NCBI GenBank assembly: GCA_017642425.1
Contig: JAGCPB010000105.1
Coordinates: 1 to 47,951, forward strand
Source of the DNA: Bacteroidaceae bacterium
GTDB lineage: Bacteria; Bacteroidota; Bacteroidia; Bacteroidales; Bacteroidaceae
Direction: 5' to 3'
Length of the DNA: 47,951 nucleotides
Below the pieces are notes generated by a model. The model had not been told where the DNA came from. It ran no database searches and worked only from the letters and a program-made list of their open reading frames with translations. Below, in pieces: positions 16,175 through 26,515 of the stretch; positions within the stretch are counted from its first letter, which is position 1; each line of letters starts with the position of its first letter. Position numbers and translations under genes: made by a program.

Positions 16175-17173
16175 ATGAAGTTTTTGACAAATGAGAAACT
16201 GGTCATCTCCGGCGCAGCCGGTATGATCGGATCAAACATGGCACAGACTGCCATCATGATGGGACTGTCATCAAACATCTGTCTTTATGATGTTTATCTG
16301 CCCGGTCTGGAGGGTGTGGTTGAGGAACTCCGTCACTGCTCATTCCCCGGCGTGAACATCACCTTCACCGACAAGGTTGAGGAGGCTTTCAAGGATGCCA
16401 AGTACATGGTTTCTTCTGGTGGTGCACCCCGCAAGGCCGGAATGACCCGCGAGGATCTGCTGGTAGGCAATGCCAAGATCGCCGAGCAGCTTGGTAAGGA
16501 TATCAAGACCTACTGCCCTGACCTTAAGCACTGCGTCATTATATTCAACCCCGCCGATATCACCGGTCTGGTTACTCTGGTTTACTCAGGTCTGAAACCT
16601 TCACAGATCACCACTCTGGCTGCTCTTGACTCAACACGTCTGCAGAGCGCACTTGCCAAGCATTTCGGCATAGCTCAGGACAAGGTTACCACAGCCCGTA
16701 CTTATGGCGGCCACGGTGAGCAGATGGCAGTATTCGCATCAACAGCAAAGATTGACGGCAAGCCTCTGACCGATATCATCGGCACTCCCGCTCTTACAAA
16801 CGAGCAGTGGGCACAGATGAAGCAGGATGTAATCAAGGGTGGTGCCAAGATCATCGAGTTGCGCGGACGTTCATCATTCCAGAGCCCCTCATTCGTATCT
16901 ATCGAGATGATAGGTGCTGCCATGGGCGGTCAGAAGTTCGAGTGGCCCGCTGGCTGCTACGTAAACAACTCACAGTTCCAGAACGTGATGATGGCTATGC
17001 CTTCAACCATTGACGCTACCGGCGTTCACTACACCGACGTCAAGGGTACCGCAACTGAGATGGCTGACATCGAGGCCAGCTACAAGCATCTGCAGGCTAT
17101 GCGTGACGAGGTTATCTCTCTTGGAGTGCTTCCCGCAGTAAGCGAGTGGAAGAAATACAACCCCAATCTCTGA
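16175..17173 (+). CDS. mdh: Malate dehydrogenase (lactate/malate dehydrogenase family)
   Basis: A 332-residue NAD-dependent dehydrogenase interconverting malate and oxaloacetate. In Bacteroidales it feeds the reductive branch to fumarate and succinate. Features: the nucleotide-binding Gly motif SGAAGMIGSNMAQ, SSGGAPRKAGMTREDLL (substrate loop), NPADITGLV, the ALDSTRLQSALAKHFG region, and the catalytic His in TYGGHGEQMAVF (about 180). It is monocistronic: its own promoter element lies upstream and a strong terminator follows. The fumarate reductase/succinate dehydrogenase genes at the window end act in the same pathway. Confidence 0.94.
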   Translation: MKFLTNEKLVISGAAGMIGSNMAQTAIMMGLSSNICLYDVYLPGLEGVVEELRHCSFPGVNITFTDKVEEAFKDAKYMVSSGGAPRKAGMTREDLLVGNAKIAEQLGKDIKTYCPDLKHCVIIFNPADITGLVTLVYSGLKPSQITTLAALDSTRLQSALAKHFGIAQDKVTTARTYGGHGEQMAVFASTAKIDGKPLTDIIGTPALTNEQWAQMKQDVIKGGAKIIELRGRSSFQSPSFVSIEMIGAAMGGQKFEWPAGCYVNNSQFQNVMMAMPSTIDATGVHYTDVKGTATEMADIEASYKHLQAMRDEVISLGVLPAVSEWKKYNPNL

Positions 17174-17197
17174 TTCCTTATTCAAGCGCAAGATTAA

Positions 17198-17230
17198 GGC
17201 GTGCGGAACGGATCCGCACGCCTTTTTTTT
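17198..17230 (+). terminator. Rho-independent terminator of mdh
   Basis: A perfect 10-bp stem (GGCGTGCGGA with TCCGCACGCC) closes a 5-base loop and is followed by eight T. It starts 24 bases after the mdh stop. Confidence 0.95.
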
Positions 17231-17314
17231 GCAAAAACTTTCCGTATTCATTAAAAAATGACTCACTTGGCGTATTTTGTGGACTGTTTAATCGGAAATG
17301 ATATTGTGATTAAT

Positions 17315-17322
17315 TAGATTTG
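17315..17322 (+). promoter_or_regulatory. -7 element for the first hybrid sensor gene
   Basis: TAGATTTG matches TAnnTTTG, 22 bases before the ATG at 17344. A -33 element is not recognisable, which suggests a weak or activated promoter. Confidence 0.45.
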
Positions 17323-17343
17323 TAGTGATAATAAGGATATTAT

Positions 17344-20300
17344 ATGAGAAGAATCATAATATCAGCGCTGATTATACTATACACGTCATTGCTTTGGGCT
17401 ATCAACGGAGTCTCCATATCCCAGAATACAATAGGCAACGGACTGGAAAGCCAGTCCATGAACATAATTGCCAAAGACAGGCAGGGACGTCTTTGGGTAG
17501 GATCGGATGTAGGCATTTCATTGATATCCAACGGAACGGTGACAAATATCAGGGAACTGGCCACTGAAGGCGGGCTGGTGATATTGGGCAATGTCAGGGA
17601 AATTGTGTGCACAAACAGTATCCTGATAGCATGCGACGACAGAATCCTTCACTATGACTACAAGAAAAACAATGCCTTTACGGTCAGATATGATGAAACC
17701 ATTCTGAACACACAGGACTTCCTGTTGGAAGGAAACGTGGCCACATTCTATGACAGAGATACCCGAAGTCTGTATTCCTATGACATGGAAAGTATGGAAT
17801 GCAGCCTGGTGGCCTCCTTGACCGAACACAGAGAACACTCTTTCAGCAAGATCCTGCGTTCCAACTCAGACTCTACCATAATCTATCTGGCCGATGACTT
17901 ATATGGTCTGTACCGTTTCAACCGTAAGGACGGCTCTATGATACATGTGCCTAATACAGACACTCCCATTATAGCAAAAGCCACGGTAATAGACAACAGC
18001 AATGTAATATGGCTTTCGGTGCCTTCAAAGGGAATAAAAGGATATCATATAAGCGGAGGATTTGATCTGGTGGCGGAGTACAACACCGGTAATTGTGACC
18101 TGATATCGGATGATATTTCATATATCTGCTCATTGCCGAACGGAAACCTGCTCACATGCCATTCCAAAGCCGGAAGCTGTACCATAGAACGCAACAACAG
18201 GGTTTCGGGGAGGACAAACGTAATCAGGATTCCGGACCTGAAGAACATAACATCCGTGCTTGCCAATTCTCAGGACAGGGAAACGCTTTATGCCACAGAC
18301 GGATATGGTCTGATTTCAATGAAAAAGACCTTCATTGAACAGTTCTCTTACCTATATGAGCAGGAAAACGGCATTATCAGTTATGAAAACTTCATTTCGG
18401 CTATTGAAGAACCTCAAGGCTCTGTAATACTGGGTACTAAAGACAACGGCATCTGCAGAATCAACCCTGCCACAAGCCAGAAGGTTACAATACCTGAAAC
18501 CAGGAGTTTCAAAGTCAATACAATGTGCCGGTTTGATGACAACAGCATACTGATGTATGATGAAAGCTCGGGACTGCTGCTGTTTGACTGCAGAAACGGC
18601 AAGACAACGTCACTTGCCGGTCATCCCGTACTTGGCGGCATTTCCAGATCCAGGTCCACCAACATGCGTCTTGCATCCACCCCGGACGGGACCATATTCA
18701 TTTTCAATGTCAACTCCAGTCACTACATATACAGGAAGAATGAAAACAGGATCAAGGAATTGACACTCAGTTCATTTGACGGCAGAAGTATTACATCGGT
18801 AGAAAACATCTGTATTTCGAGATATGCCGTCTATGCCACATGCATGGGAGAAATCCTGGAAATCAATTTCAATGCCACGGATACCAGATGCATATATCAC
18901 AACAAGGAAAGAGTGATTCACAACATAACCTCATTGGCTTCAAACTCCAGAGGTGAGCTGTTCTTTACGGAACCGGAGGGGCTTCATTGCTACAACCCGC
19001 ATTCTAATGCGGATGAACTGCTTATCAATACATGGGGAAACGGACGTTTCATGAATGTAGCCGTTGACAGCAAGGACCGTGTATGGTTCAACACCACCGA
19101 CGAGTATCTGCATATGTATGATCCCGAAAAGAAAGAGCTGCTCATGTATTCCGTCGAAGACGGAGTGCCCGATTCCCGTTCACAGAACAAATTTTCCATC
19201 TGCACCACATCCGGAATAATCCTCTACCCCAATGCAAACGGAATGGTGGCAATCAATACCAACGGATCACTGATGTATGACACTCCTCCCATAGAGGTAA
19301 CCTGTGTTTCGCTCAGGACAGAGAGAAGGGAAATACCGGAAAAGTATCTTGCCGGCTCACTCGACAAACCGGTAAGACTGCCGTCAAAGTTCAGGGAACT
19401 GACCCTTGAATTCTCAGCGAACGAGTTCAATCCCATCTATCCTCACCTGCTCATATATGATATCTACAGGAACAACCTTCCAATAAAGTCCATCAGTACC
19501 ACCAGCACTGAAATAACCCTTCCAAGACTGGATAACGGCACTTACAGCGTGGTCATAAGACAGGCTTACCGCAGGGGACTCAGCGAACCGCAAACCATAC
19601 TCATGTTCAGGATCCCCAATTCCTATTTCGGGACCATCCCTGGAGTGCTCACAGCCCTTGCCCTGATGCTTGCTTTCGGTTATTCAATAGCTAAAATCTC
19701 AAGTACAAGAGAAAAGAACCGCATGGAAAAAGCCATAGCGGCACAGGATATAAAGAACCGGGAAGACAAGATTGCATTCCTTTCCAACATAGCCCACGAG
19801 CTGCGGACTCCGCTTTCGCTTATATACAATCCCGTAAAGGACTTCCTCCAGGAGAAATCCGTTGACGGAATCGATTATGAACGTATGGAACGTATATTCA
19901 ATCAGGTCAACAAAATGACGGTTATGGTCAATATGATTCTTGACAGCAGCCGTGCCGATATAAACAAAGCCGATATCCTGATTGAAGAGGTTAATCTTAA
20001 CGAATGGATCAACTTCCTTCTGGAAGATTACCGCATTGACTGTTATGGCAAAGGTTTCAGTCTCAAGTTCATAATGGACAATTCAATAGGTACAGTCTCC
20101 ATTGACAAGAGAATTATAGAAACCGGACTCTCCAACATGGTTAACAATGCCATAAAATACAGTCCTACAGGAACAACAATAACGGTGAGCACTTCAAAGG
20201 TTGGCGAAGAGATGATACGCGTCTCTGTCAAAGATCAGGGACGTGGATTCTCCTGTGACCCTGAGGAGCTGTTCAAACGTTATTACAGGGACAATATAGA

Positions 20301-21321
20301 CAACTCCATTCCCGGATACGGGTTGGGACTTCCATATGCACGCCTTCAGCTGAGTCTCATCAACGGAAACATGTCGGCTTTCAGGAATGAAGACGGAGAG
20401 GGTTCCACATTCTACATGGAATTCCCCTCTGTTATAGGAAATAACGGCGCTCCTGTCCATAAAAACGTTAACGGGCAGACAGGTAATGAAGCATCGGAAA
20501 AACCAGAAGACAACATACACCATGAGATGACAGAAGAAGGAATGGCTCAGGACTTTGATACCAACAACATGACAATAATGTATGTTGGAACTGATGACGA
20601 TGAACTCAAATCATTTACCGATAAGTTCAGTGGTATGTTCAAGCTTATCCTGACCGCTCATGATGGCATTGAAGCTATCAACCTGCTTAAACAAACCGAT
20701 ACAGACCTTGTCGTCAGCAATGCAGATATGCCCAATATGGATGGTTTTGAACTCTGCCGCACCATAAAAGGCACTCTGGAAATAAGCCACATCCCTGTAA
20801 TACTTCTCACATCACGCACGGACAAAAGGAACAAGGCCCTGGGATATAAGATGGGTGCAGATGCCTTCATCAGCAAACCATATGATTTTAAGAAGATGAA
20901 TGCCTTGATAAGGAGTCAGTTGGGTGGTCGTTTTGAGGTAAAACGCCAATACAATTACGGTTTCTTCAGCACTATGAACCCTGACCAGACTTTCAGCATG
21001 ACAGATGAAGAGTTCATACGCTCCCTTAACACACATATCAACGAACATATATCAGACCTTTCATTGAATGACGGTTTCATAACCGAACAGATGAATCTGT
21101 CACCGTCAGTCATTTCAACAAAGATGAATATGCTACTGGGAACAGACCTGAACAGTTATATCAACAGGATAAGGATAAGGCTTGTCAAAGACAAACTCAT
21201 GGATACGGACAAGGAACTTGAGGCTATCGCCAGGGAGACCGGTTTCAAGGATGTTGAAGCCTTGAACGAGGCTTTCAGACGTGAGACCGGCAAGAATGTT
21301 TTTGAAATACGTGACTTATAA
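17344..21321 (+). CDS. Hybrid two-component sensor/regulator with degenerate receiver (HTCS-like)
   Basis: A 1325-residue one-protein phosphorelay. In order: signal peptide (about 1-19); a periplasmic sensor of two beta-propellers with Reg_prop repeats (DRQGRLWVGSDVGISLI); a Y_Y_Y domain (about 686-755); a membrane helix (about 762-782); a HisKA domain with phospho-accepting His818 (NIAHELRTPLS); HATPase with N, G1 and G2 boxes (NNAIKYS, DQGRGF, GYGLGL); a receiver (about 1075-1195); and a C-terminal AraC-type HTH. The receiver is abnormal: Asn1126 stands at the phospho-acceptor position (VVSNADMP), and Gly-Thr at 1082-1083 replaces the acidic pair. The Lys (SKPYD) and Thr (LLTSRT) remain. 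The second HTH half-motif is also divergent (KDVEALNEAFRRETG). It is a tandem paralogue of the next gene. The ligand is unknown and no PUL genes are adjacent. Confidence 0.9.
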   Translation: MRRIIISALIILYTSLLWAINGVSISQNTIGNGLESQSMNIIAKDRQGRLWVGSDVGISLISNGTVTNIRELATEGGLVILGNVREIVCTNSILIACDDRILHYDYKKNNAFTVRYDETILNTQDFLLEGNVATFYDRDTRSLYSYDMESMECSLVASLTEHREHSFSKILRSNSDSTIIYLADDLYGLYRFNRKDGSMIHVPNTDTPIIAKATVIDNSNVIWLSVPSKGIKGYHISGGFDLVAEYNTGNCDLISDDISYICSLPNGNLLTCHSKAGSCTIERNNRVSGRTNVIRIPDLKNITSVLANSQDRETLYATDGYGLISMKKTFIEQFSYLYEQENGIISYENFISAIEEPQGSVILGTKDNGICRINPATSQKVTIPETRSFKVNTMCRFDDNSILMYDESSGLLLFDCRNGKTTSLAGHPVLGGISRSRSTNMRLASTPDGTIFIFNVNSSHYIYRKNENRIKELTLSSFDGRSITSVENICISRYAVYATCMGEILEINFNATDTRCIYHNKERVIHNITSLASNSRGELFFTEPEGLHCYNPHSNADELLINTWGNGRFMNVAVDSKDRVWFNTTDEYLHMYDPEKKELLMYSVEDGVPDSRSQNKFSICTTSGIILYPNANGMVAINTNGSLMYDTPPIEVTCVSLRTERREIPEKYLAGSLDKPVRLPSKFRELTLEFSANEFNPIYPHLLIYDIYRNNLPIKSISTTSTEITLPRLDNGTYSVVIRQAYRRGLSEPQTILMFRIPNSYFGTIPGVLTALALMLAFGYSIAKISSTREKNRMEKAIAAQDIKNREDKIAFLSNIAHELRTPLSLIYNPVKDFLQEKSVDGIDYERMERIFNQVNKMTVMVNMILDSSRADINKADILIEEVNLNEWINFLLEDYRIDCYGKGFSLKFIMDNSIGTVSIDKRIIETGLSNMVNNAIKYSPTGTTITVSTSKVGEEMIRVSVKDQGRGFSCDPEELFKRYYRDNIDNSIPGYGLGLPYARLQLSLINGNMSAFRNEDGEGSTFYMEFPSVIGNNGAPVHKNVNGQTGNEASEKPEDNIHHEMTEEGMAQDFDTNNMTIMYVGTDDDELKSFTDKFSGMFKLILTAHDGIEAINLLKQTDTDLVVSNADMPNMDGFELCRTIKGTLEISHIPVILLTSRTDKRNKALGYKMGADAFISKPYDFKKMNALIRSQLGGRFEVKRQYNYGFFSTMNPDQTFSMTDEEFIRSLNTHINEHISDLSLNDGFITEQMNLSPSVISTKMNMLLGTDLNSYINRIRIRLVKDKLMDTDKELEAIARETGFKDVEALNEAFRRETGKNVFEIRDL

Positions 21322-21391
21322 GTGTCTTTCATGATTTGTTCATTCAATTCATATTTACTACATTAGCCAAACAATCATAGAATCAAGTCAT

Positions 21392-24300
21392 ATGAAAAAG
21401 AGGATTCTGACAATATTGTTATCATTCATTGCTTTTCTGAACTTAAGCGCCAACTACACTCAGCAGGTGCAGATTGGAACAGATAAGGGTCTCAGCTGCG
21501 ATGCCGTCAGGGCGTTTGCCAGAGATATTTACGGACGGCTTTGGGTGGGAACCGTAAACGGTGCAGACATGATTTCCAACGGGATAATTCGTCAGTATCA
21601 GTATTTCACGGTTGACGGTAATGACATTGTTGCCGGCGACGTACAGTCAATAGGATGTTCCCGGCGGGCAATCATTGCCACCACCCACCATTTAATCGAT
21701 TTCGATCCTGACAATGATTCCACAAGCATAGTCACTTATGACGGCAGGAATATCCGCACAGAATTCATTATGATGAGGGGAGATTCGGCATTTTTCTTCA
21801 ATATGCCCTTAAGTGCCGTGATGATGTATGACCTTAACACCTGTACGACCAGAATTGTGGCACAGTTCCCGTCAGAACGCCAATTCCACTTTACCAAGAT
21901 ACTCCAGGTCTCAAATGATCCCAATCAGTTGCTGCTGGTTGAGGATGAACGAGGTTTCTATCATCTTGACATAACCACAGGAGCCCTTACACATCTGGAA
22001 AATCTTGGCGCAGGTGTTATTAGCAGGGCAGCATTCATTGATTCAAAAGACATACTTTGGATAGCCTACAGGGATAAGGGCATCTCCGGTTATTATGTAA
22101 AATCCGGATTTGACCTGATAGCCCACTTTGACAGGTCAAATTCAGAAATACCTGAAAACAATATTATCTGTCTTTCAGAAATGCCTGACGGCAGCCTTTT
22201 TACCTGTTCTCCAAATAACGGAATATGTATCCTGAACCGAAAGACCGGAAAGGCCGAGGATGTTTTTTTCAAGCAGATACCGCCCATGCATGTTTTATGT
22301 GCTATGTCCAATGAAACAGAGAATGAAATTATCCTGGGTACATTGCATAGAGGTATAATTACATTGAAAAAGTCTTTTTTCCACAACCTGAACAACACCG
22401 TCACCGAGCACGACACAGAATCTACAAGCATACCGATATCAGGTTATCAGGAGAGTGACGGCACAATCTGGTTCGGTTCCGGCGGATTCGGAATAAGCCG
22501 TTTTGATGAAGAAAAAGAGGTTTTTACCCAATTCCAGGCAACAGATGGAATGAGAATAGCCGGTATATGCCAATATGATGAGAACAACCTGTTGATTACC
22601 GAGCGTACACAGGGACTTTTCCTTTTCAACAAAAGAAGAGGAACTATCAGTGAGGCAAAATTCCTTTCTGATGCCGGAATCAACATATCATCATCAAGGC
22701 TGACCAATCTTAAAACCTTAACGACACCAGACGGAGATATCATGTTGTTCAACTGCAACGGCCGTCATCTGATATACCGCCGTAACATCAAAGAAGTAAC
22801 GGAAATAGTGCTGCAGATGAACGGTGAGGAGAACAGAGGCGTGGTTGAAGACGTAAAGATGTATCCTTCGCACGCCACCGTAGTATGTAACGGTTGCATC
22901 TACGAGATTGACTACAGGACATTGCTGGCCCGACTCATATTCCAGAACCAGGAAGACGGACACAGCGCCATATCCCGCGTTGTAGAGGATTCACGCGGCA
23001 TCATCTGGGCTTGTTCACCCGATGAACTTATCAGTTATGACCCCAGGGCCAACAAACTGTCAAGAGTTATGGACAAGAAAGACTACGGAGTCTTTCTGTC
23101 AATGGCTATAGACCTCCATGATCATCTTTGGATTACCACAGACAAAAGCTTCATGATCATGTTTGATACCAATAACAAGGAGTTCCAGGAGCCCTCTACC
23201 TATTATGGCAGGGATTGCGGAACAATGCTCAACTTCATGCCGGGTTTCTCTTTGGTATCTGACAAGGGGCTCGTCTATTTTCCTAATACTTCCGGTCTTA
23301 TTGTCATTGATCCCAATGACGCAGACATACGTTTCAACAGCGATCCATACCCTTTGGCACTTACCAAGATCGTCCTTGACGGAACCATATATGAAAGCCA
23401 CGGTGTACAGAACAAACCTCTCAGCCTCCCTAACAAGTTTTCACTTTTAGGCGTCCATGTAGCCCTCAATCAGTTTGATCCCACAAGACCTGTCTCCCTT
23501 AAATATACACTCATGAAGAAAGGCAGGCTGTATCCTGTAATGGAAGTTGTAACAACCAACACAGAACTTTCCATTCCCAGGTCCACTCATGGTTCTTACA
23601 CTCTTTCCGTAAGCCAGCACACAATACAAGGTTGGAGTGAACCCCAGAATATACTTTCCTATAATGTGGCACGTCCCTTCATAATGACAGTACCTGCATA
23701 CCTTCTCATCATTGCCATCATCATATCCATAAGCGTAACCATATCAAAGGTCGGTATCAGTTTGAAACAGATTGATATGGACCGCGCCATCAATGCCCAG
23801 GAGAACAAGCACAAGGATGACAAAATCTCCCTACTCTCAAATCTGGCTCATGAACTCAGGACACCGTTATCGCTGATATATAACCCGGTAAAGGATATGC
23901 TTGAAGAGAAGTCTGTCAAAGGTATTGACTATGACCGTCTGGAACGCATATTCAATCAGGTTCAGAAGATGACAGAGATGGTCAATACCATTCTGGACAA
24001 GGGAACCAGTGACATCAATAGAAGTGACATTGTAATAGAGCAGGTTGACCTTAACGAATTGATCGGCAAGATTATTGAGGATTTCAAGATTGACTGTTAT
24101 GCAAAAGGCCTTAAGACCCAATTTGAGCCTATGTCCGGTCTGGGCAGGACAGGAATTGATGTCAAGATGGTAGAAACCGCTGTAAACAATATAATGACCA
24201 ATGCCATAAAATACAGCGACACCGGCACCATCACAATATCCACCGGTCATGACAAGGGCATGATCTGGATCAAATTCCATGACGAAGGCCGCGGTTTCAC

Positions 24301-25366
24301 CTGCAAGCCCGAAGAACTCTTCAAACGTTATTACAGGGAAAATGAGAACATACCCGGATATGGACTGGGTCTTTCTCACGCCAAACTGCTGATAGAACTG
24401 CTGGATGGTAAAATAAAAGCCGAAAAGAACATAGGTCCTGGCTCTACATTTACCATTGAGATACCTGATGACTTGTCAGAAAGATTCGGCAGTACACAGA
24501 CCAAACCTCAACCTCAGGCTCCTGTCATGTCCGAAACAACTGATTTCGGCACTATTGAGGAGACATCACAGAACGATGAAGTCTATTTTGATACTAAGAG
24601 CATGACTCTTCTCATTGTTGATGATCAGGATGATATACTGCAATTCATCAAAGACGAGTACTCTCAGCTGTTCAAGACCATCTACACTGCTCATGACGGC
24701 AAGGAAGCACTGGATATTATACGTCAGCGTATGCCGAATGTGGTTGTCAGCGACATAATGATGCCCCGTATGAACGGATTCGAACTTTGTAAGACCATTA
24801 AGACAGATCTGGAACTCAGTAGCATACCTGTCATCCTGCTTACTTCACGTAGCGATCCCAAAAATCAGGATATGGGTTACAAGATGGGAGCTGACTCATT
24901 CCTGCCTAAACCGTTTGATTCAAAGCTTCTGTACAAGATAATAAGGAGTCAGCTTAAGAATAGGTTCGAGATCAAGCGGCAGTACGCTACTTCATTCTTC
25001 ACTGCCATATCAGAGGATCAGACATTCAGTGCTGCCGATGAACAATTTGTCCTAAAGCTCAACCGCTTTATCCGTGAGAACCTGTCAAATACCATGCTGG
25101 GTGTGGATATGATAGTTGATCACATGAATGTTTCACGAACCACTCTGTTCAACAAGATGAACAACCTGGTAGGTGCATCTACAAACAAGTACATACGCCG
25201 CATAAGGATAGATGTGGCAAAGGATTTGCTGTCCAAGACAAACAAATCAGTAGGCACCATAGCCGAGGAGACAGGATTCTCCGAGAGCCAGTACTTCAGT
25301 ACCGTTTTCAAGCAGGAGACAGGAATGACACCGTCCCAGTTCAAGGACTCACTACGTAAGATATAG
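21392..25366 (+). CDS. Hybrid two-component sensor/regulator (HTCS), canonical receiver
   Basis: A 1324-residue paralogue of the preceding protein with the same domain order: signal peptide, Reg_prop beta-propellers (DIYGRLWVGTVNGADMI), Y_Y_Y domain, membrane helix (about 765-787), HisKA with His820 (NLAHELRTPLS), and HATPase (TNAIKYS, DEGRGF, GYGLGL). The receiver has acidic pair Asp1077-Asp1078, phospho-acceptor Asp1121 (VVSDIMMP) and Lys (PKPFD). The AraC HTH is canonical (TGFSESQYFSTVFKQETG, then MTPSQF). HTCS proteins usually sense oligosaccharides and activate adjacent susCD loci; none is adjacent here, so the regulon is unknown. The gap to the first gene is 70 bases with no terminator or clear promoter, so co-transcription is likely. 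Confidence 0.93.
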   Translation: MKKRILTILLSFIAFLNLSANYTQQVQIGTDKGLSCDAVRAFARDIYGRLWVGTVNGADMISNGIIRQYQYFTVDGNDIVAGDVQSIGCSRRAIIATTHHLIDFDPDNDSTSIVTYDGRNIRTEFIMMRGDSAFFFNMPLSAVMMYDLNTCTTRIVAQFPSERQFHFTKILQVSNDPNQLLLVEDERGFYHLDITTGALTHLENLGAGVISRAAFIDSKDILWIAYRDKGISGYYVKSGFDLIAHFDRSNSEIPENNIICLSEMPDGSLFTCSPNNGICILNRKTGKAEDVFFKQIPPMHVLCAMSNETENEIILGTLHRGIITLKKSFFHNLNNTVTEHDTESTSIPISGYQESDGTIWFGSGGFGISRFDEEKEVFTQFQATDGMRIAGICQYDENNLLITERTQGLFLFNKRRGTISEAKFLSDAGINISSSRLTNLKTLTTPDGDIMLFNCNGRHLIYRRNIKEVTEIVLQMNGEENRGVVEDVKMYPSHATVVCNGCIYEIDYRTLLARLIFQNQEDGHSAISRVVEDSRGIIWACSPDELISYDPRANKLSRVMDKKDYGVFLSMAIDLHDHLWITTDKSFMIMFDTNNKEFQEPSTYYGRDCGTMLNFMPGFSLVSDKGLVYFPNTSGLIVIDPNDADIRFNSDPYPLALTKIVLDGTIYESHGVQNKPLSLPNKFSLLGVHVALNQFDPTRPVSLKYTLMKKGRLYPVMEVVTTNTELSIPRSTHGSYTLSVSQHTIQGWSEPQNILSYNVARPFIMTVPAYLLIIAIIISISVTISKVGISLKQIDMDRAINAQENKHKDDKISLLSNLAHELRTPLSLIYNPVKDMLEEKSVKGIDYDRLERIFNQVQKMTEMVNTILDKGTSDINRSDIVIEQVDLNELIGKIIEDFKIDCYAKGLKTQFEPMSGLGRTGIDVKMVETAVNNIMTNAIKYSDTGTITISTGHDKGMIWIKFHDEGRGFTCKPEELFKRYYRENENIPGYGLGLSHAKLLIELLDGKIKAEKNIGPGSTFTIEIPDDLSERFGSTQTKPQPQAPVMSETTDFGTIEETSQNDEVYFDTKSMTLLIVDDQDDILQFIKDEYSQLFKTIYTAHDGKEALDIIRQRMPNVVVSDIMMPRMNGFELCKTIKTDLELSSIPVILLTSRSDPKNQDMGYKMGADSFLPKPFDSKLLYKIIRSQLKNRFEIKRQYATSFFTAISEDQTFSAADEQFVLKLNRFIRENLSNTMLGVDMIVDHMNVSRTTLFNKMNNLVGASTNKYIRRIRIDVAKDLLSKTNKSVGTIAEETGFSESQYFSTVFKQETGMTPSQFKDSLRKI

Positions 25367-25391
25367 CATACCGACAGAACGGAATTATCTT

Positions 25392-25428
25392 CAGGATCAC
25401 TCTTAACATGGTTTACAGAGTGATCCTG
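25392..25428. repeat. 12-bp perfect inverted repeat at the dprA 3' end
   Basis: CAGGATCACTCT and AGAGTGATCCTG are perfectly complementary around a 13-base centre. The repeat sits in the convergent junction of the second hybrid sensor gene and dprA and includes the dprA stop codon and last codons. Neither side has a T-tract. It may act as a bidirectional 3'-end hairpin. Confidence 0.7.
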
Positions 25429-26515
25429 GAGCCTGTTTTACAAGTCCCTTCATCTCAAGGCTGAACAGAATCGATGAAAGCCTGGGAAAAGGAATATTCA
25501 GTTCATTCATCAGCGTGCTTATGAACACACCCTGAGCCTTAAGGCGCACTCTTTCATATACTCTGCTTTCATCATCCGTAAGGTCAGGGAACAATTCTTT
25601 CTGAACTGCATTTCTTTTACGCTCACGGTCATTCCAGTTCATGGCGTTAACCATATCCAGGGCAGACGTTATAAGTGCCGCATGATTGTCTCTGATAAGT
25701 TCATTGCAGCCTACGGAGTACGGATCGCCCACACTGCCGGGGAAAGCAAAACACTCGCGTCCATAACTCCCTGCAATCTCGGCAGTTATCAGAGAGCCGC
25801 TCTTAGCTGCAGACTCAACTACAACCACGGCATCAGACAAACCCGCTATGATTCTGTTGCGCCTTACAAAATTAGGCCCTAAAGGTATGGTTCCGGACAT
25901 GAATTCAGTAACCAGCCCACCGTCTGACAGCATCTCTTTTGCGGTGCTGCGATGCGCATTGGGATAGATCATGTCAAGTCCATGGGCAAGCACTCCTATT
26001 GTAGGACATCCGTTTTCAAGGGATGCCTTATGGGACTCTATATCTATACCATATGCCAGGCCGCTTACTATAGTGACATCGGGACATAACTCATGTAATT
26101 CTTTAATAAAGGTGTGGCACATTCGGCGACCGTAATCAGTAGCCTTCCTTGTGCCTACAATGGCAACCATCCTGGCTGCATTGTAATTGACGTTACCCAG
26201 TGAAAACAGAACAAGGGGAGCATCATTGCAGTCCAACATCCTTGCAGGATAATCGGAATCGACGGGAGTTACGCATCTTATACCGTGTCTTTCTATAAAC
26301 TCCAGTTCTTCACGGATAAAAGAATCATACCCGGAACCGCATAACGCATCAATAATATGCGTATCGATTCCGGGTATGATTTCCTTAAGATGTTCGCGAT
26401 TCCTGAAGATCTCCTGCGCGCTTCCGAACTGCTTATACAGGTACTTGGCACCTATACAACCTAATCCGTCTATTCTGTTAAGAGTGAGCAGCGCCGTCAG
26501 TTCATCTTCCGGCAT
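25403..26515 (-). CDS. dprA: DNA-processing protein DprA (Smf)
   Basis: A 370-residue protein that loads RecA on incoming single-stranded DNA during natural transformation. It is also conserved in bacteria not known to be competent. An N-terminal HhH-like region (LLTLNRIDGLGCIGAKYL) precedes the extended Rossmann fold with IVGTRKATDYGRRMC, VSGLAYGIDIESHKASL, GPNFVRRNRIIAGLSDAV and SAAKSGSLITAEIAGSYGRE. A C-terminal winged-helix domain follows (GVFISTLMNELNIPFPRLSS). It lies 29 bases downstream of the TPR lipoprotein gene and could be co-transcribed with it. Its last residues (LCKPC) are encoded within an inverted repeat. Confidence 0.95.
   Translation of the reverse strand: MPEDELTALLTLNRIDGLGCIGAKYLYKQFGSAQEIFRNREHLKEIIPGIDTHIIDALCGSGYDSFIREELEFIERHGIRCVTPVDSDYPARMLDCNDAPLVLFSLGNVNYNAARMVAIVGTRKATDYGRRMCHTFIKELHELCPDVTIVSGLAYGIDIESHKASLENGCPTIGVLAHGLDMIYPNAHRSTAKEMLSDGGLVTEFMSGTIPLGPNFVRRNRIIAGLSDAVVVVESAAKSGSLITAEIAGSYGRECFAFPGSVGDPYSVGCNELIRDNHAALITSALDMVNAMNWNDRERKRNAVQKELFPDLTDDESRVYERVRLKAQGVFISTLMNELNIPFPRLSSILFSLEMKGLVKQAPGSLCKPC

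What the first reader, a model, noticed from the sequence alone, without database searches (positions are those of the whole stretch)
17344..21321. Giant hybrid sensor kinase with a pseudo-receiver next to a canonical paralogue
Comparing the two tandem paralogues: the second has acidic pair Asp1077-Asp1078 and phospho-acceptor Asp1121 (VVSDIMMP). The first has Gly1082-Thr1083 and Asn1126 (VVSNADMP). Its His818 and its N, G1 and G2 boxes look intact. The kinase core could therefore still autophosphorylate, but its own receiver should not accept phosphate in the normal way. Possible roles are phospho-transfer to the neighbour's receiver in a heterodimer, a phosphorylation-independent DNA binder, a decoy, or early decay. 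The C-terminal HTH is also more divergent.
Basis: partly seen in the sequence, partly recalled or inferred. Interest (0 to 1): 0.72.

Follow-up and report, generated by a model that had tools for sequence, protein, structure and literature searches.

The report
Sensor split into kinase and receiver
Two neighbouring gut-bacterial sensor genes look like one signalling machine divided in two: one copy seems kept as the phosphate-adding enzyme and the other as the phosphate-receiving gene switch, in a class of sensors thought to work alone.

Summary
Gene A (17344-21321) has an intact histidine kinase but a pseudo-receiver (GT for the acidic pair, N1126 for the phospho-acceptor); its tandem neighbour B is canonical. 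In 17 species of the genus (Candidatus Colenecus / GTDB UBA1179) carrying both, no A has an intact acidic pair and all keep the kinase boxes, while all 17 B receivers are canonical. The Asn itself is not conserved (Asp in 13 of 17). Constraint is mirror-image: A's DHp helices are 99% identical and its receiver 62%; B's are 83% and 96%. For the same species pairs, receiver dN is higher in A in 136 of 136, DHp dN in 0 of 120. At the same locus, three relatives carry a receiver-less kinase beside a kinase-dead receiver protein, one B lacks its ATPase, and six loci are empty. Of 27 readable loci of this clade none is kinase-only or receiver-only. Best reading: a subunit-divided hybrid two-component system, A donating phosphate to B, probably as a hetero-oligomer. 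Decay and an independent DNA-binding role are disfavoured. There is no biochemistry, and B's own kinase looks intact in 15 of 17, so A may be a second input rather than B's sole donor.

The parts
17344..21321 (+). Gene A: hybrid sensor with propeller, TM, HisKA, HATPase, pseudo-receiver and divergent AraC-type HTH (1325 aa)
19636..19692 (+). A: transmembrane segment before the kinase (residues 765-783)
   Evidence: hydrophobicity scan
19750..19974 (+). A: DHp helices with His818 (residues 803-877); 99.2% mean identity in 17 species, measured over B positions 805-875
19975..20436 (+). A: ATP-binding domain, N/G1/G2 boxes intact (residues 878-1031)
20566..20928 (+). A: pseudo-receiver (residues 1075-1195)
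20587..20592 (+). A: Gly1082-Thr1083 in place of the acidic pair
20719..20721 (+). A: Asn1126 in place of the phospho-acceptor Asp
21079..21315 (+). A: divergent AraC-type HTH (residues 1246-1324)
21392..25366 (+). Gene B: canonical hybrid sensor (1324 aa), proposed receiver/DNA-binding partner
23804..24028 (+). B: DHp helices with His820 (residues 805-879)
24599..24961 (+). B: canonical receiver (residues 1070-1190), D1077 D1078 D1121 K1173; 96% mean identity in 17 species
25112..25351 (+). B: AraC-type HTH (residues 1241-1320); 91% mean identity
17315..17322 (+). TANNTTTG promoter-like element, starting 29 bases upstream of A; none in the 70-base A-B gap (that this is the Bacteroidetes -7 element is recalled)
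17196..17224 (+). Terminator-like hairpin (12 pairs, T run) after mdh; the only + strand one listed for 17100-25500
16175..17173 (+). malate dehydrogenase-like gene, left flank of the locus
   Evidence: name from sequence, recalled
25403..26515 (-). dprA-like gene, right flank of the locus
   Evidence: name from sequence, recalled

Best explanation
A and B are two subunits of one divided hybrid two-component system. An ancestral hybrid sensor was duplicated into A, B and (in some species) Z. A was specialised as the phosphodonor: it senses through its propeller, autophosphorylates on His818, and passes the phosphoryl group to Asp1121 of B's receiver, since its own receiver presumably cannot bind the metal ion and take phosphate in the normal way. 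B is specialised as the acceptor and DNA-binding output while mostly keeping its own kinase, so the pair can read two periplasmic signals into one output. Contact is most likely by a DHp hetero-oligomer in the membrane. Shown by sequence: residue losses, mirror-image constraint, complementary truncations, all-or-none presence. Inferred: phosphotransfer, its direction, and heterodimerisation.
Against: B's kinase boxes are intact in 15 of 17 B (G267 lacks the ATPase domain; in G301 the G2 box reads X) and B's kinase is under purifying selection (dN/dS about .02-.18 in branch-disjoint pairs), so B may not need A. K, the kinase most clearly forced to act in trans, does not show A's extreme DHp constraint (.12 and .27). 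The ATPase domain is slower in A in only 5 of 7 branch-disjoint pairs. Same-genome A and B are not more alike in DHp than A and B of different genomes (.679 against .678). A's receiver is still under purifying selection (.08-.42), so it is not dead freight. No structure prediction (switched off), interaction or phosphorylation data.
Confidence: 0.62

Rival explanations
1. A is a negative regulator of B: by heterodimerising or by dephosphorylating B's receiver through its conserved DHp (HELRT), it holds B off until A's ligand arrives. The pseudo-receiver keeps A from competing for phosphate.
For: DHp is the most conserved part of A and HELRT is kept in 17 of 17. RetS is a hybrid kinase that blocks GacS autophosphorylation by heterodimer formation (passages of PMC4866733).
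Against: A's ATP-binding domain is also more conserved than B's on average (.834 against .687) and its boxes are intact in 17 of 17; pure inhibition or phosphatase action would not obviously need them. K beside a kinase-dead Z would have no kinase to inhibit at that locus.
Confidence: 0.2
2. A is an orphan kinase that feeds response regulators encoded elsewhere; its neighbourhood with B is only inherited from tandem duplication.
For: A kinase without a working receiver needs some acceptor; no partner was tested biochemically.
Against: Adjacency kept in 17 of 17, all-or-none presence in 27 readable loci, no promoter-like element in the window's A-B gap, and K-Z pairs in which the neighbour is a receiver lacking a kinase.
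Confidence: 0.08
3. A's pseudo-receiver is a regulatory domain acting on A's own kinase (as in ShkA), or A is a phosphorylation-independent DNA-binding partner of B.
For: A's receiver and HTH remain under purifying selection; conserved A-specific acids exist (D1084 in 15 of 17, D/E two residues after the phospho-acceptor position in 17 of 17); ShkA is stimulated through a pseudo-receiver (abstract of PMC7010744).
Against: The kinases of G305, G303, G288 and G255 that group with A lack receiver and HTH, and G267 A lacks a complete HTH, so neither is indispensable everywhere. Can be true together with the best explanation.
Confidence: 0.08
4. A is a duplicate in early decay, or the missing residues are assembly errors.
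For: The Asn is shared only with G243 among 17, and receiver dN is high in A.
Against: 17 of 17 open reading frames; dN/dS well below 1; loss of the acidic pair in 17 genomes; DHp near-invariant while its synonymous sites turn over normally.
Confidence: 0.02

Closest known systems
Bacteroides hybrid two-component systems (HTCS), as in PMC11253607
   Same: Propeller sensor, TM, HisKA, HATPase, receiver and AraC-type HTH in one chain; B is an ordinary member by sequence.
   Different: HTCSs are described as signalling through a homodimer and as insulated by tethering kinase and regulator in one chain. Here two chains carry complementary losses, and A's DHp is near-invariant.
Pseudo-receivers / aspartate-less receivers (PMC12632262; PMC4395418, listing only)
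   Same: A lacks residues needed for phosphotransfer; about 6% of bacterial receivers do.
   Different: Here the pseudo-receiver sits in a hybrid kinase whose tandem paralogue supplies a working receiver, and the loss is traced across 17 species.
GacS-RetS-LadS multikinase network of Pseudomonas (PMC4866733, passages)
   Same: Hybrid kinases that heterodimerise or pass phosphate between proteins.
   Different: Separate response regulator and an HPt step (abstract); separate loci (recalled). Complementary decay of tandem paralogues is not in the passages read.
CmrRST with pseudo-receiver regulator CmrT (C. difficile; read of in PMC12632262 section 19)
   Same: A pseudo-receiver protein co-encoded with an otherwise normal two-component system.
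   Different: There the pseudo-receiver is in a response regulator; here in a kinase-competent membrane sensor.
B. thetaiotaomicron BT4236 (CSIP-EK, Gln at the kinase His site; PMC11253607 section 14)
   Same: An HTCS without the phospho-acceptor His and with a changed S/CHIP motif; B here has SSIP in 17 of 17.
   Different: Read there as suggesting phosphorylation-independent control; whether it has a trans kinase was not tested here. B keeps its His; the His is lost in Z, which mostly keeps SHIP.

Membership tests
HTCS | Periplasmic Reg_prop propeller and a TM segment before the kinase | tested here: met
   Reg_prop above cut-off in A and B; TM at 765-783 in A, 764-782 in B. No Y_Y_Y match was listed for A or B.
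HTCS | HisKA and HATPase_c with H, N, G1, G2 boxes | tested here: met
   A and B
HTCS | Phosphorylatable receiver in the same chain | tested here: not met
   A: no intact acidic pair in 17 of 17. Residues met for B in 17 of 17.
HTCS | C-terminal AraC-type HTH | tested here: met
   A 45.7 bits, B 69.1 bits, cut-off 33.6; G267 A and the 3 K proteins have no HTH_18 match
HTCS | Works as a self-contained homodimer | not testable with these tools
   Complementary losses argue against it for A
Pseudo-receiver (PsR) | Recognised as a receiver but lacks key catalytic residues | tested here: met
   PF00072 60.9 bits with GT and N
Aspartate-less receiver (ALR) | Phospho-acceptor Asp absent | tested here: met
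   Met in the window and 3 of the 16 other A; not met in 13 of 17
Heterodimeric histidine kinase (RetS/GacS type) | Physical heterodimer of DHp domains | not testable with these tools
   Only suggestive and post hoc: A-B DHp identity .682 exceeds A-S .593 and B-S .612 (bootstrap .95 and .92; 16 genomes, G267 left out), but the propeller also shows A-B above A-S (.98)

The most novel reading that the evidence does not exclude
Hybrid two-component systems can re-divide: after tandem duplication the fused sensor-regulator becomes an obligate hetero-oligomer in which kinase, receiver and DNA-binding duties lie on different membrane chains, up to a receiver-less kinase beside a kinase-dead regulator, and this has happened at more than one locus in one genus. 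HTCS insulation by tethering is then reversible and heteromeric HTCSs exist.
Probability: 0.5. Interest if true: 0.75.

Novelty: new variant of a known kind. Interest (0 to 1): 0.63.

Why it matters
HTCSs are a major class of regulators of polysaccharide-utilisation genes in Bacteroides and are treated as self-contained homodimers (PMC11253607). A natural series from one canonical gene, through a kinase-specialised plus receiver-specialised pair, to a receiver-less kinase with a kinase-dead regulator would show how a fused signalling protein becomes untethered, would give a concrete role to a kinase that carries a pseudo-receiver, and would let two periplasmic sensors act on one output. The prediction of A-to-B phosphotransfer is directly testable with purified cytoplasmic fragments.

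Tried and rejected
Gene conversion between A and B as the cause of DHp conservation: same-genome identity shows no excess (DHp .679 against .678; the propeller.270 against .267, does in all but 68 of 5000 permutations). Nucleotide-level constraint (overlapping element) under the A DHp: dS there is ordinary.41-2.47 in eight disjoint pairs. Register shift placing another Asp at the acceptor site: no indel between A and B across the receiver. Recent strain-level mutation: excluded for the acidic pair; the Asn is shared only with G243. Wider spread: with A as query at E <= 1e-100, 29 of 301 family genomes matched, 14 of this genus and 15 of other genera (at 25-27% identity; the 15 HTCSs from there that I aligned are canonical); with the kinase-type protein of the second locus (L091 11469-15203) at E <= 1e-90, 21 of 399 matched, all of this genus. 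In the capped listing, read by eye, no two matches lay within 5 kb outside this genome and G050. Literature on divided HTCS pairs: none that I recognised in the listings of searches (4 of 4 papers listed; 1 of 1; 7 of 8; 15 of 195; 1 of 1; 10 of 15; 12 of 26). A binding motif of B: only a promoter-like element was found. The pairs were disjoint in rows but two of them share a branch; redid the counts with branch-disjoint pairs and gave the same numbers for DHp, ATPase, receiver and HTH. The label YYY in my scripts is positional only.
Full report
WHAT IS THERE. The window lies in a 2.6-Mb draft genome (87% complete) of a herbivore-gut Bacteroidaceae genus. Of 17 named records found with A as query, 16 carry an A orthologue (46-69% identity) and one (L111, 32%) does not; titles include red deer, reindeer, sheep, water buffalo and horse samples, RUG genomes (rumen, recalled), UBA1179 and Candidatus Colenecus caballi. 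A passage of PMC8957277 says that Colenecus is the new name of GTDB genus UBA1179. Genes A (17344-21321) and B (21392-25366) stand in tandem between a malate dehydrogenase-like gene and a dprA-like gene (names recalled from sequence). Both have Reg_prop repeats, HisKA, HATPase_c, a receiver and an AraC-type HTH. A's receiver has Gly-Thr for the acidic pair and Asn for the phospho-acceptor, with Thr1156 and Lys1178 kept; its kinase boxes are intact. The best solved relative of A's receiver-HTH part is a hybrid two-component system protein (12aw).

CONSERVATION. Of 37 genus genomes searched, 17 carry a nearly full-length A orthologue (G315 matches from residue 82, G267 to 1278), in each case beside B. 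In all 17 A, H, N, G1 and G2 boxes are intact. The first acidic-pair position is G, S or C in 17 of 17; the second is acidic only in G175. The phospho-acceptor position is Asp in 13, Asn in 2 (window, G243) and Glu in 2 (G175, G119); the Lys is Arg in G119. All 17 B have D-D, D, T and K. So the lost acidic pair is old and the Asn recent. Controls: 40 HTCSs that I picked roughly in score order from the listing (38 from other genera, 2 from other loci of this genus) all keep His, Asp, Thr/Ser and Lys; the acidic pair was scored in 38 by script and seen one column off in the other two; four have an unusual G1 box. The 15 out-of-genus HTCSs have canonical receivers too. For scale, a review gives about 6% pseudo-receivers among bacterial receivers and 0.9% of HisKA domains without the His (PMC12632262, sections 4 and 6).

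MIRROR-IMAGE CONSTRAINT. Mean pairwise identity within A against within B over 17 genomes: propeller .57/.63, DHp .99/.83, ATP-binding .83/.69, receiver .62/.96, HTH .56/.91. With each species pair as its own clock, dN is higher in A in 0 of 120 pairs for DHp, 7 of 120 for the ATP-binding domain, 136 of 136 for the receiver and 136 of 136 for the HTH (G267 was dropped for DHp and ATPase because its B lacks the latter). In pairs whose paths on the species tree share no branch the counts are 0 of 7, 2 of 7, 8 of 8 and 8 of 8. Median dN ratios A/B are .07.64, 16.6 and 11.2; for the propeller 1.27. In branch-disjoint pairs with finite dS, dN/dS is at most .013 for A's DHp.004-.048 for B's receiver.08-.42 for A's receiver and about .02-.18 for B's kinase domains, so nothing is neutral. 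In the single canonical gene (S) of G304/G307 the values are .025 for DHp and .061 for the receiver (dS saturated for two other domains): A's DHp and B's receiver are tighter than this one-pair baseline.

A SECOND SET OF LOCI. G088 and G050 carry two or three clustered hybrid sensors at other sites; two of the four clusters lie beside ychF-like and CoA-transferase-like genes (names recalled). In each cluster one member has a complete HTH or is cut by the contig end before it (L092, L093), and this member has a degenerate phospho-acceptor region: unmatched in two, and with a His but no recognisable motif in the other two; the two scanned by Pfam have no HisKA match. Other members have a shortened HTH region, and in each cluster at least one of these keeps H, N, G1 and G2 boxes in recognisable form. 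One of them (L091 11469-15206) keeps only one of the five receiver residues; others (L090 9143-12850, L093 3333-7052) have a canonical receiver and no Pfam kinase domain. Further hybrid sensors of these two genomes were not read. Whether this division is independent of the mdh-dprA one is not settled.

MECHANISM. The most economical reading is trans-phosphorylation inside a hetero-oligomer: A (or K) supplies the kinase, B (or Z) the receiver and HTH. Shown: residues, truncations, rates, co-presence. Inferred: phosphate flow and contact. A and B DHp are more alike than either is to S (.682 against .593 and .612; bootstrap .95 and .92; 16 genomes), unlike the ATPase, receiver and HTH domains, but the propeller also shows A-B above A-S; this was post hoc and is only suggestive. 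Against the simplest form: B's boxes are complete in 15 of 17 and B is probably still a kinase, so A may be a second input. K's DHp is not extremely constrained (.12 and .27). A's receiver and HTH still evolve under constraint and may have a structural or regulatory duty. The propellers of A and B are 27% identical, so separate ligands are plausible. B carries SSIP in 17 of 17 where 16 of 17 A, 2 of 3 S and 4 of 6 whole Z have SHIP, a motif linked to receiver-HTH inhibition in HTCSs (PMC11253607 sections 7 and 14), so B's output control may differ.

EXPRESSION. A terminator-like hairpin follows mdh (17196-17224; six such sites against 6.3 expected in the region, so only its 12-pair stem and T run set it apart). 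A TANNTTTG element starts 29 bases upstream of A and none lies in the 70-base A-B gap; A-B gaps in the 17 genomes are 17-77 bases between longest ORFs. One operon is likely.

KNOWN AND NEW. B is an ordinary HTCS by sequence. A is an HTCS by descent with a pseudo-receiver; it fails the feature 'phosphorylatable receiver'. HTCSs are described as signalling through a homodimer and kept insulated by tethering (PMC11253607 introduction). Heterodimer formation or cross-phosphotransfer between hybrid kinases is known in Pseudomonas and elsewhere (PMC4866733 and PMC8175716, passages) and a kinase-controlling pseudo-receiver in ShkA (PMC7010744, abstract). B. thetaiotaomicron has loci with two HTCS paralogues and proposed joint regulons (PMC3878776, passages); complementary decay is not mentioned in the passages read. 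Of PMC12632262 I read the abstract and sections 4, 6, 7 and 19; of PMC11253607 the abstract, sections 3, 7 and 14 and passages; PMC4395418 was seen only in a search listing. I recognised no report of divided HTCS pairs in the listings of searches, which cover only the held library and, for some, only the top of the list. Hence: new variant of a known kind.

Noticed in passing
L090, L091 (G088); L092, L093 (G050): Clusters of two or three giant hybrid sensors at other loci with complementary loss of kinase, receiver or HTH, including several with a shortened HTH region.
   Followed up: partly
window 24818-24829 (B residues 1143-1146) and the 16 other B: B carries SSIP instead of the S/CHIP motif of HTCS receivers in 17 of 17 species, while A, S and Z mostly keep SHIP.
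   Followed up: partly
L112 1595-1840: Relic of B's HTH (82 residues, 91% identical) left between dprA and mdh in G024, where the rest of the cassette is gone.
   Followed up: yes
window 20593-20595 and 20725-20727 (A D1084, D1128): A's pseudo-receiver has conserved acids of its own: D1084 in 15 of 17 and D/E two residues after the phospho-acceptor position in 17 of 17, where B has Q and M.
   Followed up: no
L079 9258-13145: G315 A starts with an unrelated N-terminus (MGLNFRKSISLGKGLKLNLSKSGPS) and no mdh was found beside it; fusion, rearrangement or assembly error.
   Followed up: no
L080 2951-3898: The mdh-like gene of G311 lacks 16 residues near its N-terminus (316 aa against 332); possibly an assembly error.
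   Followed up: no
genome G000: At E <= 1e-30 only three places in the own genome match B: B itself, A and one at C40 (20 of 35 candidates were scored).
   Followed up: no
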